Of a DNA stretch of 64,000 nt, positions 2,661 to 56,361 are shown in pieces (the stretch's first letter is position 1; every line of letters begins with the position of its first letter). The position numbers and the translations under genes were made by a program. The notes under the pieces were generated by a model. That model made no database searches. It was not told the origin of the DNA and saw only the letters and a program-made list of their open reading frames with translations. The DNA comes from Vicia villosa (lineage: Eukaryota > Streptophyta > Magnoliopsida > Fabales > Fabaceae), in NCBI RefSeq assembly GCF_029867415.1, contig NC_081185.1, positions 110,540,913-110,604,912 on the forward strand, read 5' to 3'.

Positions 2661-2665
2661 AGGCA

Positions 2666-4598: not shown

Positions 4599-4854
4599 AC
4601 TGATTCTTCTGCTCCCCTTTTCTAATATGAAGGCCTATGTAAGGAACTCGAGATGATGAAAGAGATGGTCCAAGATCCTCTAATGCAAGGATTGCTTCAT
4701 TTGTGGCAATAAAGACTTGGAATGAAACTGATTCTTCTGCTCCCCTTTTCTAATATGAAGGCCTATATAAGGAACTCGAGATGATGAAAGAGATGGTCCA
4801 AGATCCTCTAATGCAAGGATTGCTTCATTTGTGGCAATAAAGACTTGGAATGAA
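4599..4854. repeat. Near-perfect 128-bp tandem duplication
   Basis: The 128-bp unit beginning ACTGATTCTTCTGCTCCCC at 4599 is repeated at 4727. I noticed one difference in the body of the unit (GCCTATGTAAGG against GCCTATATAAGG). The low divergence indicates a recent event. The minus-strand frame over it (4895-4680) is open only because the duplication lacks stops; no protein family was recognised. Confidence 0.9.
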
Positions 4855-11867: not shown

Positions 11868-14800
11868 ATGGTTGCTTTTGGCAAAAAGTTGAGAGAATCA
11901 CAGATTCAAGAATGGAAAGGGTATACAGTTTTGATATTTGTACCAAAGTCAGTAACGTTTTTATTTTGATTCATGTAACACACGCTTAACTTTTTTTTCT
12001 TCCAGATACTACATTAACTATAAGTTTATGAAGAAGAAAGTGAAGAGATATACAGAACAAATTGAGGTTGGAGCTCAAAATCACCATAACATACTCCGCG
12101 ACTTTTCATTGCTTCTAGACAATCAGGTGAATATATCTAAGGATATGTTTGGATTGGTGGTAAATATAATATTATTAGTAACACGTACTTGAGAATTTTT
12201 TTTTTTAAGTCTTTCTTTGCTTTTGAGTTTCAGATAGAAAAAATTGTTTTGTTTCTGCTTGAGCAACAAGGAGTTCTGGCGGGGAGGCTTACGCGTATTG
12301 GAGAAGATCACCAAAGTGTTGTACAGCAGCCAGATTGTTCAAAGATATCTGAAGTCCAAGATGCATATAGAGAAGTTGGAAGAGATCTATTAAAGCTTCT
12401 TTATTTTGTGGAAATGAATGCTACTGGTTTGAGAAAGATCTTGAAGAAGTTTGATAAACGAATCAGCTATAAATTCGCCGACTATTATGTCAAGACTCGC
12501 GCAAATCATCCGTATTCTCAGCTAAGACAGGTTCTAAGGCACGTGGTAATGTTTCTAACCCTGATATATATCCTGGTTAATGTTCAGGGTCGTCTTAAGT
12601 TTTTGAAAGTCATGTGTAAGTTAGTTACGATTCAACTGGGACAAAATAATGAAAGACTCTATTTAGTCATGGTTTACCCGTGACAACTCTATTATGAGCC
12701 CTATTTAACTCAATTTAACTGTGGATAATTTGAACACACCTTGCACATCCTCAAAGACGGACCTGGGCCTATTAATGTTACAATTCTATTGTTGCAAAAT
12801 GTAAGGTAGGATTTTGTATCATCTTTGGTATCATGTAAAAGTTTCTTTGCAGGGAATTGGTGCTGTTGTGGGAGTCTTGTCTCATAATCTTGCAGACATT
12901 CATGATTTACAAAGGAGTCAAGGAAGCTACATTTCTATATATGACCAACCTTCTTATGCTCATCAAGTTAGTTTTTGACCCATTGTTTACATTATACAGT
13001 TATGGTTGGTAATTGGTATTCAGTATTCTTCAAACACTTGATGAGGATTTCCTTTTGAATTTTTCTTGAAGGATCCAATTCTTGTATCTATCAAAGCAGC
13101 AACAGACAAATTATCCAACTCAACAAGTTTCCTTCAGTATTTGGGAAGACATGCTTTTATCATGCAGCAAGAAGAACTATCACCATCTCCGTCCGAAGAA
13201 AACACTATTGACGAAAGATATCATTTTATGTCGCTTCTTTTGAACTTGGCAAGCACATTTTTGTATATGGTCAATACTTACATCGTTGTACCTACGGCCG
13301 ACAACTACTCTTTAAACCTTGGAGCTGCTGCAAGTGTTTGTGGCGTCGTCATCGGTTCAATGGCTGTTGCACAGGTGTTTGCTTCTGTTTACTTCAGCGC
13401 GTGGTCAAACCGATCTTATCTAAAACCTCTTATATTCAGTACCATCGTTCTTCTAATCGGAAACATCATGTATGCATTGGCCTATGATCTTAACTCAGTA
13501 GTAGTTCTTCTTATGGGACGACTTTTCTGTGGGCTAGGCTCTGCAAGGGCGGTGAATAGGCGTTATATCAGCGACTGTGTGCCGGTGAAACTTCGGATGC
13601 AAGCATCAGCAGGTTTTGTCAGTGCAAGTGCTCTTGGAATGGCTTGTGGTCCAGCTGTTGCTTGTTTGTTACAGACTGAGTTTAAGATTTACAAGTTGAC
13701 AATGAACCAAGACACGCTACCTGGATGGGTAATGGCTGTTGCGTGGCTCGTTTATCTACTTTGGCTGTGCACTTGTTTTAAGGAACCAGAAAATGTTTGG
13801 GCTTATGAAGCAGAAACTGGTATGTATATGTCAGCAAGGTTCCTTGTATTCATTTTTTTTATATGGTATTACTTTTATTTACGGTTCTCTAAACGCATAT
13901 AGGAGAACAAGCAGTGCACATTGCAGTAGAGAATAGTCCTGCACAACCATTACTAATGAATTCAGAAGCAAGAGAGCAAGATGTAAATGTAGATGAAGAA
14001 AAAGACGATGACGAAGAAGTTTATGATAAAGCTGAATCTCAGAAACCTGTTACTTCTATTGCGCTGGCGTATAAGTTGCTTACACCATCAGTAAAGGTAA
14101 GGAACCTGTTATGATTCTTCTTACTTTCTTAACTTTCTTCTATTATTTGAAGTCTGAATCAATCTTTTGCTCTAACTATGAATAATTTTACTAGGTTCAA
14201 TTGTTTGTGTATTTTATGCTCAAGTATGCAATGGAGATATTGCTCGCTGAATCAAGCCTTGTAACAGAATACTATTTTGTTTGGTCAACAACCAAAGTAG
14301 CCATTTTCCTTGCATGCCTTGGTCTTACTGTCCTTCCCGTGAATATTATTATCGGAAGCTACATCGGCAACATTTTTGAAGAAAGGTAGACCTTCTAGTT
14401 TATATTATTACTACGACATTTTTCACTTTAGACAATGGAAGAATAGACGACGACTTAAAAACCATTACGAATTCATATTAGATCTTTACTTGTCGGTTGG
14501 CTTGTACTTGCAGGCAAGTTCTACTAACATCAGAAATCATGGTTTGCATTGGACTACTCCTAAGCTTCCATACGTTAATCCCTTATTCAGTAACTCAATA
14601 TGTAGGATCGGCCCTTATCACATTTGTTTCTGCTGAAGTTCTCGAAGGTAATATATATTCTCATAATTTGTTTCTGCTGAAGTTCTCGAAGGTAATATAT
14701 ATTCTCATAATACGGTAAAGTTTTCTCCTTGAACATGGCTTAATATTATTGTTTTTGCGTGAACAATTCAGGAGTTAACCTTTCACTTCTATCGAAAATG

Positions 14801-19881: not shown

Positions 19882-20517
19882 TTAACATACTAATATAATA
19901 ATGTATCATATTTAACTCGTCATATAGAAATTTGATCTACAAACAAAACACCAACAAATCCTTCTTTGTGTTGCATTAAATCCTAAAACAAAACACCAAC
20001 AACACAAAAAGAAATACATTGTTAAAGAATCTAATAATACAAACCATCAAATATAAATTCGTCTATGTTCTTCACAATAACTCCTTATACTAGTTTTCTT
20101 TTTATCTATTACTCTTCTTTAAGTCTAAATTAAGAAGACGCAAAAAGTCAACAGTGTTGTATATTTGAAAGCTAAACAAATTATATGTCCGCTATACATA
20201 CCAATTAACAAATATTCAAATTTATTACATCTTAATATCATATTCACCTCAAACAATATCCATAAACTTATGGACTATGTAACAATCTCAAATAATACAT
20301 TTATGTTGAAAAAAACTTATGAGAATAATCCATAGTTGGAATTAACAAATATGAGAATTTTTTATAACAGAGTTAATTTCACAAAATAGATCGATGATTC
20401 TTTAATTGTAGATGATGTATATCTTAGATTCAACATTGATTTTTTTTATAAAAAGTTCTAAGCTCACACCCCCACAAACCATAATCAAACAAAATACAAC
20501 TTGCAATTGAAATTGAA

Positions 20518-20616
20518 GAATTTATAAGTTTCCTACCATTTGAAGTAATGCTCTACATCTTCTCATTATTAAATTTGAGGGTATTAATATTGACAAGTCT
20601 CGGGTCAAAGGAATGA
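20518..20616 (+). pseudogene. F-box domain relic, copy A
   Basis: The plus-strand frame reads EFISFLPFEVMLYIFSLLNL and then ILTSLGSKE before a TGA where the family has Trp. This matches an F-box helix pair of the type found at the start of plant F-box/FBD/LRR proteins (xLPxExxxxILSxLxxxxxxxTSxxSKxW). Only about 33 codons are recognisable. Downstream sequence to about 21300 is non-open but conserved among copies, so it probably represents the decayed rest of the gene. Confidence 0.65.
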
Positions 20617-22636
20617 TAAATCTAATAAAAATATATTTATCAATGATATCATAAAAGCCTAAATCTTGATGAGTTAAAGATGTCTGCTGGAATTGGTAAA
20701 GTATTCCTTATTATTCAGATATACATATTACAATCAATTATTGTTCAAAACAGACAATTCAATCTACTTGTAATCAAAACTCCCCAGACCTTCATACAAT
20801 GTGCATAGTGAAAAAAAACTATTCCATAAATTATATATATGACAAATCAGTAGAAGGTTGATCAATGATTTCATTTTGTATCATGTCAATATTCAATTTG
20901 AGAAGTTAATGTGGTGCCCTTTAACTTCATTTGTCATGATAGTGTGAAACTATTGGTCAACCTTCTTCCTAATTATGGGATGGTCTCATCACTATGCACC
21001 ATAAATGGAGGTAAAGCGTTTTGTATGCGAAGTGATTGAATTTTTTATTTCTTAAAATAATTAAATTTGATACGTATATCTAATTTGTAAGGGAAATTCT
21101 ACTCAATTCACAGAAGACTATTTGGAGACATCTTTAATTCATTAGAATTTAGGATTTATGATATCATTAACAAACATATTTTCACATTTTATCGACATGG
21201 AATTTCTTTGACATTTTATGACATGAGATTTACGAATGATAATACCTCCAAATAATAAGGAGAACATATAGAGAATTACTTTATATGGTAGCAAATATAT
21301 GAAATCTTTGATTTCAAATGCATATTGTATTGTTTATTTAAACTATAACCCTCCACATTTTGTACTTCCTACATGATTGTTACTGATGTTTTCCATTTTA
21401 CACTAAAAATAAACATTATATTTAACAATGGGGAATATAGAATGTGCTGGCTATGAATTAATAAAGTTTAATAAAAGCAAACATGAAGTCAATAAAGAAT
21501 CATGACTAACAAAATAGAATTAAATTAAAAAATTTAAATATGAATATAGTATGAAGAGATATTTTTTCGACTATAAAGCTAATCATCAATATATATTCAA
21601 ATACTCATAAAATCACTAGCAATGCATCATATTTAACTTAATAGGTCTTACCTTTCTCATGCTATGATAAGCTTGGATATCATGAATCACCCAATATATT
21701 TATTCCATATTCATCACTTATGTGAGCAGTTCTTGTAAGCTCAATCTGAGAACTTCCATTGAAACAAAACTCTATAAAATAACAATTTTTAAACAATCAG
21801 ACTATACAAACCATCAAACACAAAATCATAATCATTAACTATAACAACAAATTCATGTTTTCTTTAGGGTTTTAAAAAGCAGTTCAACGGCAATAGATCC
21901 AATATAAACAATAGATTTGATCATTTAATTCAAACAAAAAATCAGCACAATTTGAGATTTTAGATTTCAACATTGATATTAATATACATAATCAGTTTAC
22001 AAATTAAATTCACGAACCAAAATAAGTTAAAGGTACCACAAGGGAGTGATAACATTATATGATTAACGAATCAACAAAAGGTTACCTTGGGATTGAGAGT
22101 TTGCTGTATCTATCTTCCCTATATATTCATTACTGAATTACACCATCGCGGAGAAGACACCAGGGAGATTATTGATTGAGATCTTCAAGGAGATTGATCA
22201 GGAAGATTCAGATCTAACAAATCAAGGCATTGTATATCTGAAAGCTATACATACCAATTAACAAATATTCAAATTTATTACATCTTAATATCATATTCAC
22301 CACAAACAATATCCATAAACTTAAGGACTACTACGTAACAATCTCAAATAACACATTTATGTTGAAAAAATTGATGAGAATAATCCATAGTGGGAATTAA
22401 CAAATATGAGAATTTTGTATCAACGGGGTTAATTTCACAAAATAGATCGATGATTTTTTAATTGTAGATGATGTATATCTTAGATTCAGCATTGATTTTT
22501 TTTTTATAAAAAATTCTAAGCTCACACCCCCACAAACCCCAATCAAATTCCATGATCACTAAAGGAATGCTCCATATCTTCTTAGTGGAAGATTGATGGC
22601 AAAAGAAACAAAATACAACTTGCAATTGAAATTGAA

Positions 22637-22735
22637 GAATTTATAAGTTTTCTACCATTTGAAGTAATGCTCTACATCTTCTCATTATTAAATTTGAGGG
22701 TATTAATATTGACAAGTCTCATGTCAAAAGGAATG
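22637..22735 (+). pseudogene. F-box domain relic, copy B
   Basis: The same F-box stretch as in copy A, with TCAAAAGGAATG carrying an extra A that changes frame before the conserved Lys-Trp position. Downstream, open stretches at 22800-23018 and 23068-23250 cover conserved but frame-broken sequence. Confidence 0.65.
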
Positions 22736-24299
22736 ATAAATCTAGTAAAAATATATTTATCAATGATATCATAAAAGCCTAAATCTTGATGAGTTAAAGA
22801 TGTCTGCTGGAATTATTAATTCCCACATACATATTACAATCCATCAATGCGAATTGGTTAAAGTATTCCTTATTATTGAGATATACATATTACAATCAAT
22901 TATTGTTCAAAATAGACAATTCAATCTACTTGTAATAAAAACTCCCCACCTTCATACAATGTGCATAGTGAAAAAAAAACTATTCCATAATTTATATGAC
23001 AAATCAGTAGAAGGTTGACCAATGATTTTATTTTGTGTCATGTCAATATTCAATTTGAGAAGTTAATGTGGTGCCCTTTAACTTCATTTGTCATGATAAT
23101 GTGAAACCATTGGTCAACCTTCTTTCGATAATGAAGGATAATGAAGCCTATCATTATACTAATTGTGGGATGGTCTCATCACTATGCACCATAAATGGAG
23201 GTAAAGTGTTTTGTATGCGAAGTGATCAAATTTTTTATTTCCAACAATAATTGAATTTGATACGATACTAATTCGTAAGGGAAACTCTACTCAATTCATG
23301 ATATCATTAACAAACATATTTTCACAATTTATAGACATGGGAGTTCTTTGACATGATTTACGAGTGATAATACCTCCAAATAATAAGGAGAACAGGTAGA
23401 GAATTACTTTATATGGTAGCAAATATATGAAATCTTTGATTTCAAATGCATATTGTTTTGTTTAGCATATTGTTAGAAATATGGTGTTTATCAAATACAC
23501 ATAAAATCACTAGCAAGGCATCCTATTTATTTTAATAGGTCTTACCTTCCTCATGCTATGATGAGTTTGGATATCATGAATCACCCATTTTATTTATTCC
23601 ATATTCATCACTTATGCGAGCAGTTCTTGTAAGCTCAATCTGCAAAGAAAAAAAAGACTATCATGAGAACTTCCATTGAAACAAAACTCAATTATAAAAT
23701 AACAATTTTTAACAATCAGACTATACAACCCATCAAACACAAAATCATAATTATTAACTATAATAACAACTAATTAATGTTTTCTTTCATTTTGCCAGGT
23801 TTTTAAAAAAACAGTTCAACGGCAATAGATCCAATATAAACAATAGATTCGTTCAATTAATACAAACAATACTATTTATCGTGGAAAATCAGTATCCAAA
23901 TTAAATTCACGAATCAACAAAATGTTACCTTGAGATTGAGAGTTTACTGTATCTATCTTCCTTTCATCACTGAATTACACCATGGCGGATCTGCTCAGAG
24001 AAGGAGATTGATCTGGAAGATTCAGATCTGACGAATCAAGGCACTGTATATATAAACAAGGATCATGAGATAATAGAATAGAACAAGTGGTACCGATTGG
24101 AGAACCGAAGTCAGTGATAGCAGAAAACTGCGGAATAGTTTCATTGTTGTATAAATGAAAGTGGAACTGATGCCTACGTAAACGGATCGACAACCCAAGA
24201 AATATCAGGAGCAGCAGAAGTTTTCAAATATTAAGACCTAAAATGTATAGAGGTTTTTACAACTAAGATTACTAGAGAAATCTATTTATAATCGACCAT

Positions 24300-26484: not shown

Positions 26485-27261
26485 GGGTGTGTTTGGTTCG
26501 AGGTAGAGCGAGAGGAGGGAGGGGAGGGAATATTTAAAATAAAATGTGTTTGGTTCAATTTTTAGGAGGGGAGAGGAGGAGAGGGGAGGGGAGCAAAATC
26601 CCTCCAAATGACACTTTTTGCGTTCCCCTGAATCGGGAGATTCGGAGGGGAGGGGAGGGGATCTGAGTTTTAATATTAATTAAATTAATATCTTTACTAA
26701 AATATCCTCAATTTTATTTTATTATTTTAAAAATATTATTTTCTTTCATGTTCCTAATTTTCTTTTTGTGATTTTTTCTCGATTGGTTCTCAGCCTTCCA
26801 TCAACTTATTATAATTATTCTTCACCTTCAAATTATTTTTTATTTTTTTATTTAATAAAAATTATAACTACTATAGTTTTTTTGTTTTTTTTATTATAAT
26901 TTATTTTATGTATTCAGGAGTTGTTATCAACGCATAGTTTATTTTGTGTCGAGAGTTATAAGTACTCATTTTTTTAATATTATGCTATAAGTTATGACTT
27001 TTTAATCACTCAGTTATACAAATATTATTTCCAAGAAAATATTTATGAAATTTTTATAATTGAATATCATATCACTAATATAAAATTACAAGGATAAAAT
27101 TGTAAATTATTATTAAAATCTCTCCCCTCCCCTCGTGAACCAAACATATTTTTAAACGAAATCCCTTCCCTCCCCTCCCCTCCCCTCGTTTGAACCAAAC
27201 ATATATATAATTACAAAAAATCCCTCCCCTCCCCTCCCCCTCAGTTGAACCAAACAGACTC
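26485..27261. mobile_element. PIF/Harbinger-like MITE, 777 bp, with G-rich/C-rich ends
   Basis: The left end GGGTGTGTTTGGTTC and the reverse complement of the right end, GAGTCTGTTTGGTTC, are terminal inverted repeats flanked by TTA on both sides (26482-26484 and 27262-27264). The subterminal regions hold runs of GAGGGG on the left and CCCCTC on the right, repeated several times and punctuated by further GTTTGGTTC/GAACCAAAC words. The interior is AT-rich without an open frame. Confidence 0.78.
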
Positions 27262-27305
27262 TTAGAGTTTTATATATCTCAACTCAACAAAGAAATGTTG
27301 CTAGA

Positions 27306-27332
27306 CACTACTAGAAAAAGTTGAAATAGCCA
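27306..27332. mobile_element. CACTA-type terminus at the left border of the viral insertion
   Basis: CACTACTAGAAAAAG is a typical plant CACTA (En/Spm) element end. It directly precedes the viral sequence, and subterminal-type CACTA motifs appear just after the viral sequence at 34543-34620. Confidence 0.5.
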
Positions 27333-27347
27333 CGAAAATTTAAAATA

Positions 27348-27755
27348 ATGTCATTATCTGAAGAAATTGATGTGATGTATAAAGATTTAAATAACACAAT
27401 GAATGAAATAAATAAAAATATTATATTATTAATAGAAAATACCAATAGAATTGCAGATTATACCTTTAATAAAATAAAAAATGGTCTTAATGAAATAAAT
27501 AATATACATGAAACCCTTGATGAAATTAATAGAGATAAAGAAATTGATGAAGATATAAATATTCAATAAATTAGAAAAATTCTTTATCAATTAGAAACCT
27601 TGTTAAAACATGAAGAAAGTAATAGAAGTATAACAATAAAAGATTTAGAAGAAATATTAGTTAGAACAAAAGAAGTAAACCAACTAAAAGTAGTTAAACA
27701 AGAACCTATAACTACATTTATGTTAATAAACCCATCATCTTCATGGAGGGGATAA
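27348..27755 (+). pseudogene. Viral small ORF upstream of the coat region, coiled-coil-like
   Basis: An open stretch from 27348 (ATG) to a TAA at 27567-27569 continues in the same register of residues after the stop to about 27755. It is rich in Asn, Ile, Glu and Lys with heptad-like hydrophobic spacing (IADYTFNKIKNGLNEI), consistent with a coiled coil. By position it could be a virion-associated-type protein or the N-terminal extension of the coat ORF. Family membership is not established. It is interrupted, so non-functional as it stands. Confidence 0.5.
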
Positions 27756-29189
27756 AAACTGAATACATAGAAGCATTAAGAAGATCTAATGATATTGAAG
27801 AAATTAGACAATTGATGGAACAACTACAAATAATAGAAGAAGAAAATAAACAAGTAGAAAAAATAGAAAAAAAAAATAGAAACTAAGGAAGAGAATAAAG
27901 AAGTAATATTAAATTATAATTCTTCCGAAATAGGATCTGAATTAGATATAGACGAAATATTTATGGAAAAAGGAGAAACAAGTAATTCTAAACAAAAAAG
28001 AAAACGTGAAGAGAGTGGGAATCCTCATAGTTCTTGGGAAAACTATGAAAATGAAACTATGAGTCAAAGAGGTTATGCAAAGGCTAGTGGAAAATGGACA
28101 AAAGTTGCAGAAGAATTTAAACCTTATTATGAAGAAACTAAATCTAAAAAATTATTAAACTTAGACTGTGTAAGAAATCCAGAGGATATACTACAAAGAT
28201 GGTCTAATGATATGATTATGCTTATAGAAACCGATGAAAAATTTTCTAAGATAAACCTAATGGATGTCAAGAATTTAATAGCTTATAGAACAACAGGAAA
28301 TGTGCTGAAATTCTTAACAAGTATTAATGATGAAACATGGAATCAATATATAGGAATTGTAGAAAATAATAATCAACAATTTGCTAAACTAATAATGGAA
28401 TTAATATATAAAGAATTCATAGGCTACAACATTCTTTAACATAAAACAGAAGTAAATAAACTTTTGCGAGAAAAGGTAGAAATTCATCTAATTAATATGC
28501 AGATATGTAATATGTGTGAAATATATAGTTTCATTTGTGAGTATAAAAAATACTATTATGAATTAGATAATGAGACTAGGGAAATATATAGAGGAATCTT
28601 TATATCCAAGTTACCATACCCACTTAGTGCAAAAATAAGAGATATATGAAAATCCCAACCAATTGAATTAGGTGATAGCTTAGGAGAAATTATTCAAATC
28701 TTATATAATGAATTAAGACGACAATGCATAAAGAGTACAAGAGCTAAACAATTAAATAGAGGTAGAACCTCACTTTGTTGTGATATACCAGAGATAGAGC
28801 AACCGGAAAATTATGGTTGTAATCAACGAAGTAGAAAAAGTTATAAAAGAAAACATAAATTAAGAAAAACTTATCCAAGAAAAAAGGCCTATAAAAATAC
28901 TAGAAGAAAGTATTTTAGAAAGAGAAAACAAACACCTAAAAAATATTGTCCAAAAGGAAAAAAGAAATGCGTATGTTGGATATATATGCAATGTAGAAGG
29001 TCATTATGTCAATGAATGTCCAACAAAGAAAGAAAAGGATGTTAAAGAAAAATCCAAACTAATAAAGAAAGTATATAAAATATATAATTTAGAACCATTA
29101 GAAGATGAACTAAGTGATTCTGACTGTAGTGTATATGAATATATAGAGGATGAATTATCTTCAGAAGAAATAGAATCTGAATAGTACAT
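27756..29189 (+). pseudogene. Caulimovirid coat protein region (broken)
   Basis: An acidic N-terminal part (to about 27960) precedes an open stretch at 27963-28439 containing the coat core, with QRWSNDMIML and DETWNQYIGIV. A stop at 28437-28439 is followed by another open stretch, 28464-28649, carrying a KLPYPLSAKI motif typical of caulimovirid coat cores. Next comes a very basic stretch (28830-28960) and a CCHC zinc knuckle encoded at 28968-29019, with a frame change inside it between the second Cys and the rest. An acidic tail ends at a TAG (29181-29183). This order, core then basic region then knuckle then acidic tail, is the family pattern. At least two stops and one frame break disable it. 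Confidence 0.8.
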
Positions 29190-29640
29190 ATATCAAAATT
29201 AAAATTGAAAAAGAAAACAAAGAAACTGAAGCCTATATAGATACAGGAGCAAGTATTTGTATAGCAACCAAAGCATTATTTAGTAAATGGAAAAGATTAG
29301 AAAAACCATTAAAGATTCAAATAGCAGATGGCTCAATACACCTACTAAATTGGGTAGCTACAAGAATTACTTTATATATTGAAAATAAATTATTCATAGT
29401 ACCTACAATATATCAACAAGAAACAGGGTTAGATATAATAATAGGAAATAATTTCTTACGATTATAAGCACCATTTTGCCAATACTTAGAGTATATATCG
29501 ATTAAGGCTCCATATATTAAAGGAAAACAACTGAAAGAAATTATAGATATCCCTATTATTCATTTCCTCACAAACAATTTATTCAAGAAAACAATCAGAG
29601 CTCTCTAGACTAAAACGTGATGAAATTATAGATTTAGTTT
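29184..29640 (+). pseudogene. Caulimovirid aspartic protease region of the polymerase ORF
   Basis: The retropepsin active site DTGAS is encoded at 29240-29254 within AYIDTGASICIA. It is followed by the downstream GLDIIIGNNFL pattern near 29430-29460, which corresponds to the second conserved strand of retroviral-type proteases. A stop follows immediately at 29464-29466, and further breaks separate this part from the reverse transcriptase. In caulimovirids this domain is the N-terminal part of the polymerase polyprotein and matures it; this copy cannot be read through. Confidence 0.8.
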
Positions 29641-29648
29641 GTAGAAAA

Positions 29649-31119
29649 ATGCGTTATGCATTAATTAATTTAGAACCAGGAAGAAAAATCTCAATACATA
29701 TTAAAGAACTATTAGATAAAGTGTGTAGTGAAAACCCACTAGATCCTAAAATTAATAATAAAAACATGGAACTAGTTGAATTGAAATTAAAAGACCCAAC
29801 AAAAGAAATTAAATGTAAACCTATGATATACACAAAACAAGATAGAGATGAATTTGCTGAAGATATTAAGCAAATGTGTGAAAAAGGATTAATAAGACCA
29901 TCAAAAAGTAAACATTCAGCACCAGCATTTTATGTTGAAAAATCATAATGAGATTAAAAGAGGAAAGAGAAGGGTGGTAATTAATTATAAACAAATAAAT
30001 GATGCTATGGAAGGTGATGCGTATTTTCTTCCAAGAAATGATTTAACTATCGAAAGAGTTAGAAATATGAATTGGTTTAGTACTTCTGATTGTAAATCTG
30101 GATTTTATCAAATAAGATTGTCAGAAGAATCTAAAGCTTTAACAGCATTTAGTTGCTCTCAAGGTCAATATGAATGGAATGTTCTTCCAATGGGAATGAA
30201 ACAATCACCAGGTATTTTCCTATGCAGGATGGACTCTATCCTTAAAGAATTCAAAGATTTTTGTCTTATTTATATTGATGATATATTAGTTTTTTCAAAT
30301 AAGGATCTAGATGATCACTTTAAAAAGGTAGAATTAGTACTTAATAGGTGTTTAGAACATGGAGTAGTATTAAGTAAGAAAAAAGCTATAGTAGCTCAAA
30401 ATAAAATCAATTATTTAGGATTAGAAATTAAAAAAGGGAAAATAATAATGCAAAAACATGTATTAGAAAAACTTCAAAATTTTCCCACTAAACTAAAAGA
30501 CAAAAAGGAATTACAAAGATTTCTTGGATTACTAACATATATTTCAAATGATGGTTTTATTAAAAATCTTGCAGCTGAAAGAAAATTACTTCAACAAAAA
30601 CTTAAGAAGGATGCTATTTGGTCATGGACCGAAGAAGACGAAATACTTATTACTAAATTGAAATATTTATGTCGAGATCTTCCTGAATTATATCATCCAT
30701 CAGATGTAGATCTAATTATTATTGAAACTGACGCATCAAATGAATGTTGGGGAAGTGTTGTGAAGGCTAAGCCCCCTGGCCAAAAGAAAAAATTACTATG
30801 CAGATATATGTCTGGAACCTTTTCAGACACCGAAATTAATTATCCTACTCATGAAAAAGAAACATTAGCATTAATTCGGATGTTAGAAAAACATCAAATT
30901 TATGTTCTTGATAAAGAATTTATTGTTAGAACCGATTCTACTTATGTTGCAGGTTTCAAAAATATTAATCATAAAGGAACTTACAAGCAAGGCAGACTTA
31001 TAAGATGGCAGATGAAACTAGCCGAATATAATTACTCAATTACTCACATTAAAGGCAAAAAAAACGTACTTGCAGATATACTTTCTAGAGAATGGAACGA
31101 ATCTCAGAAGACATTTTGA
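29649..31119 (+). pseudogene. Caulimovirid reverse transcriptase and RNase H (frame-broken once)
   Basis: Two open stretches, 29649-29948 and 29932-31119, lie in different frames and together span the polymerase. The first holds the N-terminal RT segment up to the KHSAPAFYVE motif. The second holds the palm with QYEWNVLPMGMKQSP, the catalytic YIDD at 30271-30282, then the connection and an RNase H domain (IETDAS at 30724, HEKETLAL, RTDS, and a final DILSRE). The long 395-codon second stretch shows decay has been modest. The polymerase copies the terminally redundant RNA into DNA. The break near 29940 and the upstream stops make it non-functional as one protein. Confidence 0.92.
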
Positions 31120-32383
31120 AACAACAATTGGAGTTAAAAGAAGCATTAAGAATTCACAAAATAAAAGAGCAAGAACTGATTGGAAAGGAAGTGGAATTAA
31201 TCGATAAGGAAATAAAAATTATAAAATCTCAACTTAGAATGAAAAATCCACTTGAAGAGATTAAATTAAAAGAACCTAAGAAATGGTATGCATTATTTAA
31301 CGGACCATTTCCAGGAATTTATGATGAATGGTATAAAGCAACCCCTCACTGTACAAAAATCTCAGGAGTTATTTATAAAGGGTATGCCACCAAAGAAGAA
31401 GCTGAAAAAACAATGAATGATCATAGAGAATCAGAAAAATCAAGAAAAGAGATTTATCTTGGCCCAAGAACTTTTCAGAAACAACAAAGAATACTGCACC
31501 AGAAAGAACATCCATGAAAATCTTAGGAAGAATCCCCTCTTCCCTGGATAATTTGCCAATTATGTCTCGAAAAGAGTATGAAAATCAGGTTAAATTCTCT
31601 GAAGAAAAATTTAAGGAGAATTTAAAAAGACTTACTTACTGGACCGAGAAAGAAAATACTAATTGTTTCTATATGGTGGATAGAAAGCTTTTTGGAGTAA
31701 AAGCTATAATCACCCCAGGAGCATCCCAGTTACTAACATTTAATATGTTCTAATTTGGACTTATTGAATGCCTTTATTTAAGTAAAAATCTGGAAGAAAT
31801 TAATCTTTTCCCATATAATTTTAAAGAATCAGTCCAGAATTTTAAAAAGAATATTGCTGGAGAAAGAAATATTTATTTAAAATTTTATTCAGCCTATCCG
31901 GATTTTACAACGAATAAACCAGCCAAGCACTTTGTCTTCATTGGAGTAAGTAATAATCAATTTCCGTTAAGAGATGACTCAAAAGAAGAAATGTATGAGG
32001 ATGATCACTTAAATATAATTTTATCTAATCAACTTTCAAGCATATTCTTTCAATGTCAAGCTATTGGAAAGAATTCATGTGTGAAAGTATTGTACAAAGC
32101 ACCTAATCTCCTACTACTAAGCAAGACAAGTGGAAAAGCAATAAAAGATAGAGATATCCATCTATTGACATCTTTTGAGCTACCATTCTATGCATTTAAT
32201 AAGGAGACAATGAATTATAAGCCATGTGTACTTAAGGAGTTATGTTCAAGTATAAAAAAGAGTGAAAATCATGCATGTGAAAGATGTTTTCAAGAAAAAG
32301 ATGCCGTGGAAGTGACCAACTGTCTAGAAAAGTCCATGTGTCTTAAGGATGAGGACAAGGAGGAACCAATAATAGAGTCATGA
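31092..32383 (+). pseudogene. Caulimovirid transactivator/viroplasmin ORF (interrupted)
   Basis: The first open stretch (31092-31517) overlaps the end of the polymerase by 28 nt, a usual arrangement. It encodes the RNase HI N-terminal-like fold seen in caulimovirid transactivators (FNGPFPGIYDEW and GYATKEEAE, about 31278-31410). Open stretches at 31514-31753 and 31991-32383 continue it, separated by a stop at 31751-31753 and at least one frame change. The product forms viroplasms and drives reinitiation on the polycistronic viral RNA in the family. The C-terminal part has clustered Cys residues near 32240-32340. The final stop lies inside the first 36-bp repeat of the intergenic region. Confidence 0.8.
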
Positions 32384-32475
32384 AGATGAGGATAAAGGAA
32401 AACAATAATAGAGTCATGAAGATGAGGATAAGGGGAAGCAATAATAGAGTCATGAAGTAGATAAAGAGTAAAGTC
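32368..32475. repeat. 36-bp direct repeats upstream of the viral promoter
   Basis: The unit AATAATAGAGTCATGAAGAT starts at 32368, 32404 and 32440; the third copy diverges after about 20 bp. The repeats lie about 140-210 bp upstream of the TATA box, where caulimovirid promoters carry enhancer elements. Confidence 0.85.
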
Positions 32476-32579
32476 ATTTGTCATGTAGTATTTAAGTATC
32501 TTAAATAAGTGGTACTATAGATGAATAGTACTATGTATTATTGTGAATAGAAAATAATATTATAATGTGTGTTTAGAGC

Positions 32580-32587
32580 TATAAATA
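32580..32587 (+). promoter_or_regulatory. Putative TATA box of the viral pregenomic RNA promoter
   Basis: TATAAATA lies in the only large non-coding region of the viral genome (32384-32904), followed by a purine-rich GGGAAGAGAAGAG tract. Position and context fit the pregenomic RNA promoter of caulimovirids. Confidence 0.55.
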
Positions 32588-32904
32588 AGTGCTTCTACAA
32601 TGGGAAGAGAAGAGTTGTAGAAAACAACCTTTGTGTAAGTTTCTCTTTAGAAACATATGCTAATCCTTTAGGATTTAGCTTGGCACCTTTTGTGTGCATT
32701 GTTGTAACATAAACTTATATCAATAATACCATGTTTACACTTATTCAAGAATCATTCAATTAAATTACACAACATATATATCTATTAATCAACTATCTCA
32801 CATAAACTTACGGAAGCAGCAGTGGACCAAAATTTCAGAAGAAATCATGATCAGGTATAATTTCTTTATTTACTTACTTTTATTAAGTGTTATAATTTTC
32901 TTAT

Positions 32905-33849
32905 ATGTCTAGCATAACAAAAATGGAAAAAGAAATAGTAAATGATATAGAACATTTACATATTACTGAAGAAGATGGAAATTATGAAGGAAGTATTTTA
33001 ATAGATCCAACCTTATTTCAAAAAATACAAAAGGAAGACTTAGATTTAACTAAGGATGCAAATATGAAAGGAAAAGATAGAATTGGAGGAATAATGAAAA
33101 GATTTAACCAAAAGGATAATATTATATATTATGGTAAAATAATTAATGAAACACCAACTGATATAGCAGATGCCCAAGGACAAACCTATATACAATTATT
33201 AAATAAAAAGAAACTCATGGAACTGAAGAAAAATATAAAGAAAGATGAACATAGAAATAAAATAGGATATATTCATATAGGAGCAGTGCAAGTATTAATC
33301 AAAGCAACTTTTCAAGAAGGAATAAATTCTCCAGTGGAACTAATATTAAAAGATGATAGAATTACAGACCCATTAGATAAAATACTTGGAGTAGTAGAAG
33401 GAAATTTAGCTTATGGTAAACTAAAATTTGAAATACATCCAAATATTGGAATACCTTTAAATACTCAAAGATTAGAGCAAACTTTAACTCTTGAACACAA
33501 ATTCCTTAGAGGAAATTTAATGAGATCAGGAGATAAAATATTTTCAATCACTTATTGTGTTAATTATGCATTAACTAATTCTCACCATAGTATTACCTTT
33601 AGAAATAATAATAATAGAATTGATATTCCAAGTCTTTTTGAAGATATAGGAAAAATTTATTATCCAAAGAAAAATGAAATAACTGAGCTAGGAACTTTTA
33701 TGAATAAATCAAAGTTTTTAGAGTTAAGAAAAAATCAAATACCAAAACCACTTAGATTTTATGAACCTGAAAAAATTGAAGAAAGTGATATTGATAAACT
33801 TTCAAACCAAATAAAAGACTTAACAACATATTTAAAAAATAGATTATAA
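32905..33849 (+). CDS. Caulimovirid movement protein (30K superfamily), open frame retained
   Basis: A 314-codon open frame starts with ATG right after the intergenic region. The core carries the highly conserved caulimovirid movement motif HIGAVQVLIKATF with SPVELILKDDRI, then GNLAYGKLKFEIHPNIG at about residues 170-190. The C-terminal part ends in a lysine-rich helix-like stretch. In the family the protein forms tubules through plasmodesmata. It is the longest viral frame here without an internal stop, unlike coat, protease and transactivator. Length is close to that of related movement proteins. Whether it is transcribed is unknown, and an open frame in an integrated copy does not show function. 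Confidence 0.88.
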   Translation: MSSITKMEKEIVNDIEHLHITEEDGNYEGSILIDPTLFQKIQKEDLDLTKDANMKGKDRIGGIMKRFNQKDNIIYYGKIINETPTDIADAQGQTYIQLLNKKKLMELKKNIKKDEHRNKIGYIHIGAVQVLIKATFQEGINSPVELILKDDRITDPLDKILGVVEGNLAYGKLKFEIHPNIGIPLNTQRLEQTLTLEHKFLRGNLMRSGDKIFSITYCVNYALTNSHHSITFRNNNNRIDIPSLFEDIGKIYYPKKNEITELGTFMNKSKFLELRKNQIPKPLRFYEPEKIEESDIDKLSNQIKDLTTYLKNRL

Positions 33850-33860
33850 ATTTAAACAAA

Positions 33861-34190
33861 ATGAATATTGCTGAATTTAGTATAAAAGAAAAAGAAAAAG
33901 AAATAGTTTTAAAAATAAAAGAAATAGATATAACTTATTTTGATAATATTGAAAATAAAGAGAAAGATTTTTATGAAAAACTAAGATGTATTTGGAAATT
34001 TACTTTACCAAATGACTTAAAAACAAAAATATGTAAAGAATATGGTAAATTATGTGCACAAGCTATACTTTTTGAAAATGAAATAGATTATGCACTAGAA
34101 AGTGATATAAATTATATTTTATTAGTTGAAAGTTTTTATGATGATGAATTTATAATAGACTTAGCTTTAATAGAAAATGATGAAATTTGA
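33861..34190 (+). CDS. Viral small ORF, 109 codons, function unknown
   Basis: An open frame starts 11 nt after the movement protein stop. The product is rich in Glu, Lys and Ile, acidic toward its C-terminus, with no motif I recognise. Position between movement protein and primer site is where caulimovirids carry small accessory genes such as transmission-helper-type proteins, but sequence gives no support for that assignment. Codon and base use match the neighbouring viral frames. Confidence 0.6.
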   Translation: MNIAEFSIKEKEKEIVLKIKEIDITYFDNIENKEKDFYEKLRCIWKFTLPNDLKTKICKEYGKLCAQAILFENEIDYALESDINYILLVESFYDDEFIIDLALIENDEI

Positions 34191-34264
34191 GACTATTTTG
34201 ATGATGATTAAGCTAATAAAAATAAATTATAAAATTATTTCAATAAATAATGAGGTATCATTTT

Positions 34265-34276
34265 TGGTATCAGAGC
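34265..34276 (+). promoter_or_regulatory. tRNA-Met primer binding site of the viral genome
   Basis: TGGTATCAGAGC is the exact complement of the 3' end of plant initiator tRNA-Met, which primes minus-strand DNA synthesis in caulimovirids. It sits in the gap between two small viral ORFs and not in the promoter region. Confidence 0.88.
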
Positions 34277-34323
34277 ACTAAGATTCAAATTAATTAAATA
34301 TAAAAAAAAATTAAAACTAGAAA

Positions 34324-34551
34324 ATGAGTATAGTTAATGAAAGGTTGCGAATTATAGAACTTAATAGTTTAATTAAAAGAACAAGAGGTCACATAAAAAT
34401 ATTATATGATAGACTAGATTATTATTTAATAATAGGAATTGATTTTGAAATTGAAAGAATTACCAAACACCTTTTAGAATACGAAAATAAATTAGATTTT
34501 TATAAATCAAGGTTAAAAGAACTAAATGCATATAAAAATATCCGTCACTGA
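34324..34551 (+). CDS. Viral small ORF downstream of the primer site, possibly end-truncated
   Basis: A 75-codon open frame of viral composition, Leu/Glu/Lys/Arg-rich and helix-prone, unrecognised. Its last codons probably run past the viral/host junction at about 34541-34545 into CACTA-type sequence, so the natural C-terminus may be lost. In the circular genome it would adjoin the small ORF at 27348. Confidence 0.5.
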   Translation: MSIVNERLRIIELNSLIKRTRGHIKILYDRLDYYLIIGIDFEIERITKHLLEYENKLDFYKSRLKELNAYKNIRH

Positions 34552-34620
34552 GATTTGCGACCAAGAAATTAGAGACCAAAGTAAAAATTCGGTCAGTAAA
34601 AACCGTCACTATCATGACTT
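34543..34620. mobile_element. CACTA-type subterminal sequence at the right border of the viral insertion
   Basis: CCGTCACTGAGATTTGCGAC, then AGAGACCAAAG and AATTCGGTCAGTAAAAACCG carry the GCGACC/GGTCGC/CCGTCAC words typical of plant CACTA subterminal regions. Together with the CACTA end at 27306 this suggests the virus lies inside such an element. Confidence 0.45.
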
Positions 34621-34699
34621 ATTTTAGCTGTGAGAGCTTATTCTTTGTTGGCTACTCTCACTCTCTTGAATTTGTAATGGAACATTAATACAACCAAAA

Positions 34700-35367: not shown

Positions 35368-35652
35368 TAGGGGTGGCAAAACGGGCTCCCCCGCAGCCGT
35401 TTTACCCGGTTTTAGACCCGCTCTCTTTAATGTGCCCGTCCCGTTTTTATGTGGGCTTTTTTATAGAATTTTACTATTTTTAGGCCTAAAAAGACGAATG
35501 CCCACGAGCTTTCCCCGTCCTCACTTTTTTGCGGGGCGGGGCAAGATTTTAGACCCACACTCTTAAAAAAGCCCGCCCCGCCCCACCCCATTTTTTCGCG
35601 GGCATTTGGGGGCGGGCCTAAACGGGACAAACATGCCCGTTTGCCACCCCTA
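35368..35652. mobile_element. hAT-type MITE, 285 bp
   Basis: The left end TAGGGGTGGCAAAACGGGC and the reverse complement of the right end, TAGGGGTGGCAAACGGGC, form an 18-19 bp terminal inverted repeat. Flanks are GCCTTAAT (35360-35367) and GCCTCAAT (35653-35660), an 8-bp target duplication with one change, as for hAT elements. The GC-rich interior gives spurious open frames on both strands. Confidence 0.88.
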
Positions 35653-39295: not shown

Positions 39296-39465
39296 TGGTA
39301 TTAGAGCAAGCATCCTGCTCTGCATCTGGGTGAGACCTAGGTTAATTTCTGGTACGATGGCCAAGGAGGGAGGATTTTTGAACAGACCACCTGTTCTGGA
39401 TGCAAGCAATTATGACTACTGGAAACCCCGTATGGTGGCTTTTTTGAAATCTATAGACAATCTAT
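39296..39465 (+). pseudogene. Ty1/copia primer site and gag start, truncated
   Basis: After the degenerate primer site, an ATG at 39357 opens a gag N-terminus (MAKEGGFLNRPPVLDASNYD then YWKPRMVAFLKS) characteristic of plant copia polyproteins. It breaks off at about 39460 in a short duplicated word (TCTATAGACAA), where hAT sequence begins. Confidence 0.75.
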
Positions 39466-45598: not shown

Positions 45599-46335
45599 CT
45601 TCTCAAGCTCATCTTTTACAGCCTTTGCTATTTCATTCTTCTGATTAAAGACGACATCGAGCTTTAACTTCGACACACTGGCTCTTATAACTGAATCAAA
45701 GCAAAAGTATCAAAACCTTTTAAAGAAGCAAGCCACTAAATTATCGATTATAGTAGGACAAAACACAACACAAAAATCTAAAATGAGATAATTTTTTAGT
45801 GTAAAACTGTGTTAAAATAGTGGTCAATTCAAACACTATAATGCAACTCTACTACGCTATAACGACTGTTTGGGAAAACTTATGTCAATAATTGAATGGA
45901 TCATAAAAATCATTATAAGCATACCATAAAATACATATGATTGGATATGTTCCCTTGTGTTGGTGAGTTTATAAAATGCATTTGACGCTTTGTCTGCCAA
46001 AGTGTGGTATTGTACAAATGCAACCACGTTCACAAAGACATTACCCTAAAAAAACAAGTTCATGAAAGTATTATGTTTTCTTAATGTTGAAGTAAAACTG
46101 GTTTGTAATAAGTGAAGGGAAATTTGCAAGCATAATAATCAAGGACCTTTGTTTTCGTCTCACATTTAACATCGTGTTGCTGGACACTAAGCGAGAATCC
46201 ACCGGCTATCTGATAGCCAAGACACCAAGGTAAGCAATGGCATCCAGGTTCTTTAACATCCATAAATCTCCCAAATTGCTCTTTTATAGCCACATTCGAC
46301 TGATTTACTTGGTAACATCCCAAAACTTAACCCAT
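45599..46335 (-). pseudogene. Hypersensitive-induced reaction (HIR) protein, first three exons, disabled
   Basis: The minus strand carries exon 1 (46335-46147), exon 2 (46045-45925) and exon 3 (45690-45599) with GT-AG introns and consistent phases. Motifs are [25 protein letters not shown] and [13 protein letters not shown] in exon 1, [12 protein letters not shown] in exon 2, and VIRASVSKLKLD and QKNEIAKAV in exon 3. They match HIR/band 7 (SPFH) membrane-raft proteins linked to cell death responses. Codon 3 is TAA in place of the usual sense codon, and nothing after exon 3, more than half of the SPFH domain and the C-terminus, is found. It is a truncated pseudogene. Exon 1 and its upstream region are part of a large inverted duplication. 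Confidence 0.85.
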
Positions 46336-46563
46336 TTTCCTGATCTTTTATTGTTGTTGGGTTGGTATTTCACTTGTAGGATGTGTAGATCTAATAAAGT
46401 AATTGGATTTCACTAATTCTACATAGATTGTTTGGCAAAAAAATCATTAAATTCTAACAGGTTTTATATTAGAGCGGGGGAATAACTCTATTTTAAAAAA
46501 TGGTTAGGATTTACCGCTAGTTAGTTGGTATGTTTTTTTATGCTATTTTTTATTTGCTAGTTG

Positions 46564-46737
46564 GAATAGGGATCCATTCCATTTCCTAAAAAGAATGAAG
46601 GGTCTATTACTATAGTTTTGTGTGTATAAAGTTAAATAAATATTAAATATATGTCACATTTCATATAAATATGTGCAATTTACCCGTAAGGCTATAGTAA
46701 TGGACACTCCATTTCTTTTTAAGAAATGGAGCGGATC
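46564..46737. mobile_element. MITE with 9-bp flanking repeat, left arm of the inverted duplication
   Basis: GATCCATTCCATTTCCTAAA and the reverse complement of the right end, GATCCGCTCCATTTCTTAAA, form imperfect inverted repeats that run through ATTACTATAG. TGCTAGTTG flanks both sides (46555-46563 and 46738-46746), suggesting a Mutator-type insertion. Confidence 0.65.
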
Positions 46738-47397
46738 TGCTAGTTGTGGTTGTGATTTTTTTGTGTTGTTCTTTTTTCTCTGTATTGTTAGTTGTTTTGT
46801 TTTGATAGTAGTTTTTTAGCTTTACACTTGTGCCTCCGTTCTCTTTGTATTTTATTTTTAGAACTTAATATTTTATGTTATATATTATAACAAATATTAA
46901 ATAATAACAAAAACATGATAAAGAAGCAGTTGTGTTAATGAAGTTAATAAATATAAAGTATTATGACAAGTTTAATTCTAAAATAAATAGAAGATAAAAT
47001 ATAGTAATAATGTTTTACAATGTTAAAATTTATGAAAATGAAGTGAAATGTTTTATTTGTACTTGCAAGATGAAGGGAAAACATTTCAATTCATTTTAAT
47101 AAATTTTAAAACATTATTACTATATTTTAGATTATGATTATTTTAGAATTAAACTTGTCATAATATTTTATATTTATTAACTTCATCAACACATTTGCTT
47201 CTTTATCATGTTTTTTTTTATTATTTAATATTTGTTATAACATATAACATAAAATACTAAGTTCTAGAAATAAAATAAAAAGATAAAGGAGGCACACATG
47301 TCAAGCTAAAAAACAACTATCAAAACAAAACAACCAACAATACAGAGAAAAAAACATCACAAAAAAAACCATAACCACAACTAGCAAATCCGCTCCA

Positions 47398-47570
47398 TTT
47401 CTTAAAAAGAAATGGAGGTACATTACTATAGTTTTCTGGGTAAATTGCATATATTTATATGACATGTGACATATATTTAATATTTATTTAACTTTATACA
47501 CACAAAACTATAGTTAATAGACTCTTCATTCTTTTGAGAAAATGGAATGGATCCCTGCTCCAACTAGCAA
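47398..47570. mobile_element. Same MITE in the right arm of the inverted duplication
   Basis: The mirror copy of the element at 46564-46737, again flanked by CAACTAGCA-type sequence. It was present before the duplication. Confidence 0.65.
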
Positions 47571-47809
47571 ACGAAAAAACAGCATAAAAAAACCACACCA
47601 ACTACCTAGCTTCAAATCCTTACCATTTTTTGAAATAGTTATTCTGCCACTCTAATATAAAACCGGTTAGAATTTAATGACTTTTGTGACAAACAATCTC
47701 TGTACAATTATTGAAAGACAATTACTTTATTAGATCTACACATTCCCGGATATAAGCTACGTATCCTACTAGTGAAATATCAACCCAACAACAATAAAAG
47801 ATCAGGAAA

Positions 47810-47998
47810 ATGGGTTAAGTTTTGGGACTCTACCAAGTAGATCAGTCGAATGAGGCTATAAAAGAGCAATTTGGGAGATTTATGGATGTTATGGAACCTG
47901 GATGTCATTGCTTATCTTGGTGTCTTGGCTATCAGATAGCTGGTGGATTATCGCTTAGTGTCCAACAACTCGATGCTAAATGCGAGACAAAAACAAAA
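47810..47998 (+). pseudogene. HIR exon 1, second copy (plus strand)
   Basis: ATG at 47810, TAA at codon 3, then the exon 1 motifs IKEQFGRF and EPGCHC with [12 protein letters not shown], ending at a GT donor (47999). Same length as the left-arm exon (189 nt). Exons 2 and 3 are absent because the duplication ends within intron 1. Not functional. Confidence 0.82.
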
Positions 47999-48289
47999 GT
48001 CCTTATTATGCTTGCAAATTTCCCTTCACTTATTACAAACTAGTCTTACTTTAGTTGATTTATTCTGTTTATATCCTTCACAATAATTCTATCTATACAT
48101 CCCATTCACTTTTCATATTCACTTCAGTCTGAGTTTCACTAAATTCAAATTAGTAAAAAATTAATTTGTTTAATTCAAATTTTATAATTTTTTTATTTGT
48201 ACTCCCTAAAAAGTGAGAAACAGTCTACTCAATCTCAAGTATTTTTTAATTCTATCTTTTGGGATATGACGGGATTCATTATATTAGAT

Positions 48290-50430: not shown

Positions 50431-50655
50431 TGGTAACATTAGTTATGTGTATTATATAATGTGTTAATCATGAATTTATATATTACAATTTCCAAAGAAA
50501 AAGCAATGATTTGAAAAACACGAGTATTTCAACCTTTTTGAATCTTGAAACAAACATTTGATAATTTCTCATTAAAAAAATTCGGCTCAAATGACACGTA
50601 ACTCAAATCACTATTACTAGACGAATGAGAGAGTTAGGGCCTTCGTTTCCTGTTC

Positions 50656-55600: not shown

Positions 55601-56361
55601 TGGAAGTGGGGGGATTTAGGTGTGAAAGATGAGGGGTTGGGGGAAGTCGGAGCTGATAGTGTGTATGGCGCTCTTAAGGGCCGGTTGATGGAATTCGGGG
55701 GTATGAAGGAAGGTAGGGATTTCGTGGTGTGGATGGGAAAGGCGGATACGGGTTCGAGCTTTTCGGTTGCCTCGTGTTACGATTTTCTTAGGCGGGTTCG
55801 GACACCTCATGGTCCTTTTGACATAAATCATGAGGCCTTTGGGATTCTTTGGAAATCGGAGGTTCCTTATAAAGTGAAGGCGTTTGGTTGGAGACTTTTC
55901 TGTAATAGACTTCCTACTTTAGACCTCTTGTTGAGAAGAGGTATGGCTATTCCCGCGGATAGTTTAAATTGTATTCTTTGCGACATTTGTGAGGAGAACA
56001 TGAGGCACTTCTTTTTTTCTTGCGGGGTGGTCAAGAAGGTGTGGTTGGAGGTAGCCGTTTGGGTGGGAAAAAAGGAGAAGAATGAGGAAGATTGTAAAGC
56101 TAGTTTTTTGGATTGGCATAACTTTTTCCGATCGAAGAAAGTGAAAAAAGGGAAGGAGGGAATGATTTGGCTTGCTTGTGTTTGGACTCTTTGGATTCTT
56201 AGAAACGGTGTTCGTTTTCGGAAGGGTAAGTGGAATGTTAACGATATTGTTTGGAATATTAAGTTTTTAGCTTGGAAGTGGACGTTTTGCGGTAAAATTA
56301 CACATCCCAATTTCTCCTATTACGAGTTTGTTATGGACCCTTTGTTGTTTCTCTCGTAGTA
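52636..56361 (+). pseudogene. LINE ORF2: endonuclease, reverse transcriptase, zf-RVT; broken
   Basis: ATG at 52636 opens an AP-endonuclease domain (SLNIRG, LLQETK, GDFNAI near 53047, SDHCPI at 53302). A stop at 53527 and several stops and frame changes at 53680-53790 follow. The reverse transcriptase starts near 53800, with SPGPDGY at about 53998, DYRPICLVG and FVPGRKLLDG, KVDFEKAYDK, LRQGDPLSP and the catalytic FADD at 54695-54706. The frame shifts at a G-run near 54243 and again near 54590. A TAG at 55163 interrupts before the C-terminal region with VPYKVKAFGWRLFCNRLPT and CILCDICEENMRHFFFSC (about 55860-56020). In active elements this protein nicks DNA and primes reverse transcription; this copy cannot make it. 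Confidence 0.92.

What the first reader, a model, noticed from the sequence alone, without database searches (positions are those of the whole stretch)
27333..34545. Single genome-length, circularly permuted endogenous caulimovirid
Seen: coat to polymerase to transactivator on the left, promoter region, then movement protein, small ORFs and primer site on the right, about 7.2 kb in total with no duplicated viral sequence at the ends. Joining the ends gives a normal circular gene order. This implies capture of one linearised genome opened between two small ORFs, about 270 bp beyond the minus-strand primer site, where caulimovirid DNA carries a discontinuity (known for the family). Most endogenous copies are fragments or rearranged, so a clean monomer is useful. 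The host is probably a legume, and the lineage may be undescribed.
Basis: partly seen in the sequence, partly recalled or inferred. Interest (0 to 1): 0.8.

Follow-up and report, generated by a model that had tools for sequence, protein, structure and literature searches.

The report
Plant virus riding a CACTA transposon
A nearly whole plant pararetrovirus genome in a vetch chromosome sits between the ends of a cut-and-paste (CACTA) transposon, and copies with the same ends have landed at different places with the transposon's 3-base footprint, which suggests how such viruses can enter and multiply in plant genomes.

Summary
The viral content is confirmed: coat, protease, RT-RNase H, transactivator, promoter region, movement protein (MP) and tRNA-Met primer site run on one strand for about 7.2 kb, with no repeat at the ends. 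The interpretation changes. The true unit is 27306-34632: it starts CACTACTAGAAAAA, ends TTATTTTAGCTGTG and is flanked by AGA on both sides. The host assembly (2.03 Gb, very probably Vicia villosa) holds at least 40 MP copies; 31 of 40 show the same right end, 24 of 40 the left end. Of 21 with both ends in hand, 16 have identical 3-bp flanks (shuffles: mean 1.3, maximum 7). Joined flanks of one copy match two uninterrupted empty sites. A 5.3-kb CACTA element in this genome shares 23 of 25 left-terminal bases, has its own 3-bp repeat and carries tnp2 transposase sequence. So this is a caulimovirid inside a non-autonomous CACTA transposon, not a random capture at a DNA discontinuity. Changes shared between copies show purifying selection in coat (N/S 0.25), MP (0.33) and RT (0.09); private changes in coat and MP are near neutral. 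This suggests, but does not prove, a living virus as donor. RT is sister to the soymoviruses compared. Closest analogue: Teratorn (herpesvirus in piggyBac).

The parts
27303..27305 (.). 3-bp target-site duplication, left copy (AGA)
27306..27341 (+). CACTA-type left end, 36 bp
   Evidence: 25-base pattern: 63 hits in the genome against 0 for the reversed control; of 29 of these fetched, 23 are joined to the viral left end; five relatives without virus agree only over about these bases
27342..34541 (+). caulimovirid genome, circularly permuted, about 7.2 kb
27348..27752 (+). small ORF (ORF C), one internal stop; perhaps the virion-associated protein (inference from its coiled-coil look; no supporting Pfam or PDB match)
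27867..29012 (+). coat protein gene, in-frame stops at 28437 and 28647; coat domain in 28440-28646
   Evidence: PF22909 E 6e-5, 23.7 bits, below the cut-off of 27; stops
28864..29181 (+). CCHC zinc knuckle, in another frame
   Evidence: PF13696 E 3e-5, below its cut-off
29174..29464 (+). aspartic protease (A3)
   Evidence: PF02160 E 1e-31
29896..31116 (+). reverse transcriptase and RNase H, open in this copy
   Evidence: PF00078 E 5e-31, PF17917 E 2e-22
31089..32380 (+). transactivator gene, over two frames with a stop at 31751; Cauli_VI domain in 31089-31514
   Evidence: PF01693 E 6e-10
32348..32457 (+). three 36-bp tandem repeats upstream of the TATA-like box (enhancer-like, inference)
32580..32587 (+). 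TATA-like box (TATAAATA) between transactivator and movement protein
   Evidence: read
32905..33846 (+). movement protein (30K type), open in this copy
   Evidence: PF01107 E 3e-42; relatives in V. villosa and Medicago
33861..34187 (+). small ORF A
34265..34276 (+). minus-strand primer site, complementary to tRNA-Met
34324..34551 (+). small ORF B; its stop codon lies inside the transposon end
34542..34632 (+). CACTA-type right end, 91 bp, ending TTATTTTAGCTGTG
   Evidence: right end seen in 31 of 40 copies
34633..34635 (.). 3-bp target-site duplication, right copy (AGA)

Best explanation
A soymovirus-like caulimovirid came to carry the two ends of a CACTA transposon between its small ORFs, near the primer site. 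The host's CACTA transposase, supplied by ordinary CACTA elements, cuts the unit at those ends and pastes it into chromosomes, leaving a 3-bp duplication. SHOWN: shared end points, 3-bp duplications at different sites, empty sites for one insertion, and a CACTA element with tnp2 sequence and a near-identical left end in the same genome. INFERRED: that the transposase acts in trans, and that the donor was a replicating virus, probably circular DNA of about 7.41 kb in which an 83-86 bp spacer joined the two ends. The inference rests on purifying selection in shared changes and on the spacer being alike in several arrays. After insertion the copies decay.
For: Ends: 31 of 40 copies show the right end and 24 of 40 the left; 16 of 21 with both have identical 3-bp flanks, against a shuffled mean of 1.3 and maximum of 7 in 20,000 shuffles. 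Of the 5 exceptions, three abut the tandem spacer on the left and one on the right; the fifth (copy 6) has no repeat. Leaving out those four junction copies, 17 were compared over 200 bp of flank: only two pairs are alike, so 15 sites, 14 with the repeat. Empty site: 120 bp of joined flanks of one copy match in full, at 98%, in two uninterrupted places. Transposase: element L109 121-5459 shares 23 of 25 left-terminal bases, has AAT on both sides and holds PF02992 E 2e-58 and PF13963 E 4e-15. Live donor, N/S of shared against private changes: coat part 0.25 v 1.02 (19 copies, Fisher 3e-6); MP 0.33 v 0.87 (30 copies; p 0.03); RT 0.09 v 0.41 (7 copies, p 0.04). Spacer of 83-86 bp in four head-to-tail junctions, and a related 60-bp form in a head-to-head pair.
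Against: The right end reads CTGTG, not the canonical TAGTG; only 10 of 14 terminal bases pair with the left end, and 22 of 2000 shuffles align as well over the longer ends. Against L109 only the left end is close: its right end (TATTTCTTGTAGTG) agrees with the viral unit's at 8 of 14 bases. L109's transposase lies in several ORFs, not shown to be functional. One copy with both ends has no duplication. No transposase was found in the pieces of the unit scanned. No episome, read data or transposition was observed. Some stop codons are themselves shared by two or more copies: 6 in the coat part, 2 in ORF C, 2 in MP, 0 in RT, so part of the spread is by defective copies, duplication or recurrent mutation. 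RT counts are small (3 against 8), and ORF C alone is not significant (0.43 v 0.91, p 0.07). Nine of 40 copies lack a recognised right end and 16 of 40 a left end in the fetched pieces.
Confidence: 0.75

Rival explanations
1. Chromosome-only amplification: one virus inserted long ago into a short CACTA element, and the dead composite was then copied as a non-autonomous CACTA transposon, with no living virus involved.
For: Shared ends, duplications and empty sites are explained equally well. Copies decay: MP is open in 13 of 30. Some stops are shared between copies. The joined 127-bp terminal parts fold end to end like a small inverted-repeat element (z -2.5; 5 of 300 shuffles as low).
Against: Shared changes are depleted for amino-acid change in coat, MP and RT compared with private ones. 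At two of three of the window's stops tested, 0 of 38 and 0 of 18 other copies carry a stop; at the third, 2 of 16 do.
Confidence: 0.2
2. One reading: accidental capture of one linearised viral genome near a discontinuity by end joining.
For: End joining is one of the standing hypotheses for endogenous caulimovirids (PMC10377300 section 3.1); circular permutation is real.
Against: The same end points recur at other loci with 3-bp duplications; the position does not fit the primer site or a purine tract.
Confidence: 0.02
3. Segmental duplication or assembly artefact created the copies with equal ends.
For: Two pairs of copies do share flanks, and copies 12 and 29 share theirs.
Against: 15 unlike flank sets among the 17 copies compared, 14 with their own 3-bp repeat.
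Confidence: 0.03

Closest known systems
Genus Soymovirus (Caulimoviridae)
   Same: MP, then primer site, then small ORFs, coat, pol and transactivator, as described for WCSV-1 (PMC6482551, passages); RT is sister to a 17-row clade that holds six named soymoviruses (100/98).
   Different: Outside that clade with a long branch; at most 51% identity over 399 columns in the tree, below the 62% RT clustering level used for genus-level units in PMC13308828 (passages; their RT segment may differ from mine); carries CACTA ends.
CACTA (En/Spm) DNA transposons
   Same: CACTA start and 3-bp duplication (superfamily features in PMC4938662, passages); left end nearly identical to that of a tnp2-bearing element here.
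   Different: No transposase found; interior is a virus; right end CTGTG instead of TAGTG.
Teratorn (medaka piggyBac-herpesvirus fusion)
   Same: A viral genome fused with a cut-and-paste transposon (PMC5601938, abstract and section list).
   Different: Plant reverse-transcribing virus, CACTA rather than piggyBac, 7.3 kb rather than 180 kb, transposase apparently supplied by the host.
Alfalfa endogenous pararetrovirus AePV
   Same: Endogenous caulimovirid MP sequence in Medicago (PMC8428138, first of three parts read).
   Different: Reported as SbCMV-like (59% over 163 aa). Whether it is the lineage seen here was not tested; its sequence was not in hand.

Membership tests
Caulimoviridae | coat, aspartic protease, RT-RNase H and MP domains | tested here: met
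   the coat match is below Pfam's cut-off
Caulimoviridae | tRNA-Met minus-strand primer site | tested here: met
   exact 12-mer
Soymovirus | MP upstream of the primer site, then small ORFs, then coat | tested here: met
   order compared with WCSV-1
Soymovirus | RT inside the soymovirus clade | tested here: not met
   sister to the 17-row clade, itself 100/99 (the bootstrap had not fully settled)
CACTA superfamily | CACTA left terminus shared by copies | tested here: met
CACTA superfamily | 3-bp target-site duplication | tested here: met
   16 of 21; empty sites for one copy
CACTA superfamily | canonical right terminus TAGTG | tested here: not met
   ends CTGTG; 10 of 14 terminal bases pair
CACTA superfamily | tnp2 transposase inside the element | tested here: not met
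   none in the pieces scanned; present in L109, so at most non-autonomous
Teratorn-type virus-transposon fusion | viral genome between transposon ends, dispersed with target-site duplications | tested here: met
Teratorn-type virus-transposon fusion | demonstrated transposition activity | not testable with these tools
   needs an assay

The most novel reading that the evidence does not exclude
A plant pararetrovirus that, while still a replicating virus, carried CACTA transposon ends in its genome and repeatedly entered its host's chromosomes by borrowing the host's CACTA transposase: an integrating pararetrovirus with a second, transposon-like life cycle.
Probability: 0.6. Interest if true: 0.95.

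Novelty: new variant of a known kind. Interest (0 to 1): 0.9.

Why it matters
[quoted passage not shown] the same section notes an earlier suggestion that a transposon-derived integrase might be hijacked), and a Teratorn review calls the mechanism of integration and propagation unknown (PMC10175614, passage). Here the footprint points to a specific enzyme class, CACTA transposase. It makes the question testable: look for CACTA ends and 3-bp duplications in other endogenous caulimovirids, and for both ends in episomal viral DNA. It would also be a virus-transposon fusion in a plant and in a reverse-transcribing virus, where the known case I cite is a fish herpesvirus. I saw no report of it in the listings of my ten paper searches (open-access PMC only, and only the top rows where many papers matched, for example 20 of 126) or in the passages I read.

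Tried and rejected
Rejected: (1) the idea that the virus simply landed in a 127-bp CACTA-type MITE at this one locus. I held it, but searches showed that the same ends travel with the virus. (2) Exaptation of MP: the MP ORF is open here and in legume relatives, but private MP changes are near neutral and 13 of 30 copies are open. (3) Discontinuity as the break. (4) P0121 as the same locus: its copia-like tail is not found in the window.

Led nowhere: scans of IMG/VR, plasmids, Rfam, tRNA scan, PDB searches for ORF C and the protease, Vicia paper searches. Not answered because the genome server was busy: the left-end and right-end DNA searches, the right-end pattern and the RT protein search. 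Rows left out of counts: 29 of the 63 pattern hits were fetched and checked, the others not one by one; the coat and ORF C counts used the 18 and 38 of 68 left-end pieces, plus the window, that covered enough of the gene; duplicate copies were merged for MP but not for coat, ORF C or RT.
Full report
WHAT IS THERE. Separate ORF pieces match the caulimovirid set in order on the plus strand: coat domain (28440-28646), CCHC knuckle (28864-29181), A3 protease (29174-29464), RT-RNase H (29896-31116), Cauli_VI transactivator (31089-31514) and 30K movement protein (32896-33846). The coat and knuckle matches are below Pfam's cut-offs; the others are above. The primer site TGGTATCAGAGC is exact at 34265. 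The copy is broken: reference pol proteins align in three frames, and in-frame stops lie at 27567, 28437, 28647, 29465 and 31751. The two viral ends share only matches of 38 bp or less.

LINEAGE AND HOST. In a tree of 64 RT-RNase H rows (the window and 63 of the 120 listed hits) the window is sister to a 17-row clade that holds six named soymoviruses (100/98), on a long branch (its bootstrap had not fully settled). The best identity in the tree was 51% over 399 columns. MP relatives in legumes form one clade with the window: V. villosa 98%, Medicago truncatula 85%. The genome holding the window has 2,034,964,285 bases. Published endogenous units near soymoviruses (passages) could include this lineage; their sequences were not in hand.

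THE ENDS. The first clue was CACTACTAGAAAAA, starting 36 bp outside the viral sequence on the left, with AGA before it and AGA after the best-matching right end at 34632. I first read this as a small element into which the virus had inserted. The genome search then gave 41 matches, which I count as 40 MP copies. Among the 30 copies fetched with it, the 91 bp to the right of the viral part is present in 25 (24 besides the window) and missing or truncated in 5; after it the DNA differs between copies, apart from a few duplicates and three copies that run into the tandem spacer. With more pieces fetched, 24 of 40 copies show the left end, 31 of 40 the right end and 21 both. Sixteen of these 21 have identical 3-bp flanks, where shuffling gives 1.3 on average and at most 7. 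Four of the five exceptions abut the tandem spacer at one end; the fifth is copy 6. With those four left out, 17 copies were compared over 200 bp of flank, and only two pairs are alike. So these are 15 separate sites, 14 with the repeat.

EMPTY SITE. For one copy (copy 29) I joined 60 bases of host flank on each side, with the 3 bp once. The 120 bases match in full at two other places at 98%, as expected if the unit was inserted there with a 3-bp duplication. The same search shows that copy 12 shares these flanks, so copies 12 and 29 are probably one insertion that was duplicated.

TRANSPOSON TYPE. A 25-base left-end pattern (up to 2 mismatches) has 63 matches in the genome and 0 for the reversed control. 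Of 29 of these fetched, 23 lead into the viral left end and 6 do not. The locus of one of the six (L102), fetched longer as L109, holds an element from 121 to 5459 with AAT on both sides. It carries Transposase_21/tnp2 and the transposase-associated domain, spread over several ORFs. These are CACTA features (3-bp duplication and CACTA terminus: PMC4938662, passages). The viral unit has no transposase in the pieces scanned. Its right end is CTGTG instead of TAGTG and is not close to that of L109 (8 of 14 bases, my count).

CIRCLE AND ARRAYS. One search found the right end and the next left end joined by a spacer of 83-86 bp, made of two units of about 40 bp, in four head-to-tail junctions (two of them about 20 kb apart on one contig). 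A head-to-head pair has a related 60-bp spacer. MP genes in three neighbouring pairs lie 7.39-7.43 kb apart (computed). For two of the pairs the whole spacer was seen, for the third only its end. This distance is close to 7.2 kb plus the two ends and the spacer. The simplest reading is a circular viral DNA of about 7.41 kb that contains both transposon ends; an ancestral chromosomal tandem array would also fit.

WAS THE DONOR ALIVE? I classed codon changes, against the commonest codon at each position, as private to one copy or shared by several. In the coat part (19 copies) N/S is 1.02 for private and 0.25 for shared changes (Fisher 3e-6); in ORF C (39 copies) 0.91 and 0.43 (p 0.07). In MP (30 copies) it is 0.87 and 0.33 (p 0.03); in RT (7 copies) 0.41 and 0.09 (p 0.04). 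Against this, 6 stop changes in the coat part, 2 in ORF C and 2 in MP are shared by more than one copy. Thirteen of 30 MP copies are open. After insertion copies drift; before it, coat, MP and RT were constrained. A transposon would not need a coat or movement protein, so I infer a replicating virus as donor, perhaps with some later spread of defective copies. The MP tree has very short inner branches and end branches from near 0 to 2.3%. With a recalled plant rate near 6.5e-9 per site per year that means insertions up to roughly 3.5 million years old, some very recent; this is rough.

VERDICT. The transposon reading of the unit is strong (about 0.93 on its own). The living-virus step is inferred (about 0.65).

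Noticed in passing
window 26485-27261: Inverted-repeat MITE of 777 bp (GGGTGTGTTTGGTTC.../...GAACCAAACAGACTC) flanked by TTA on both sides, PIF/Harbinger-like (type recalled), just left of the element.
   Followed up: partly
window 35371-35652: Small element with AGGGGTGGCAAA-type inverted ends, hAT-MITE-like (recalled).
   Followed up: no
window 39296-39307: Primer-site-like TGGTATTAGAGC followed by what looks like the start of a gag-like reading frame; perhaps a Ty1-copia-type element (recalled look).
   Followed up: no
window 50638-56359: LINE-like retrotransposon: endonuclease, RT and zf-RVT domains; strong GC skew there.
   Followed up: no
window 46090-48051: Palindrome of about 2 kb, arms 87% alike.
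   Followed up: no
window 20191-24051: Direct duplication of about 1.9 kb, 84-98% alike in pieces.
   Followed up: no
window 37238: Second CACTA-like start (CACTACTAAAAATA) followed by 52-bp repeats.
   Followed up: no
L003 and L004, 2861-3217: Two similar copies whose right part is replaced by an inverted left end, so the unit is bounded by two left ends.
   Followed up: partly
L046 (C7, near 103030900): Two left ends head to head with a 60-bp spacer that is a partial palindrome related to the array spacer.
   Followed up: partly
window 12141-13902: Host gene pieces with SPX and MFS domains; probably a plant phosphate-transporter type (recalled).
   Followed up: no
P0122-P0128: Movement-protein relatives 64-87% alike in Medicago and unnamed JGI contigs, while no RT above 52% is among the 120 of 247 hits listed; may be ascertainment.
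   Followed up: partly
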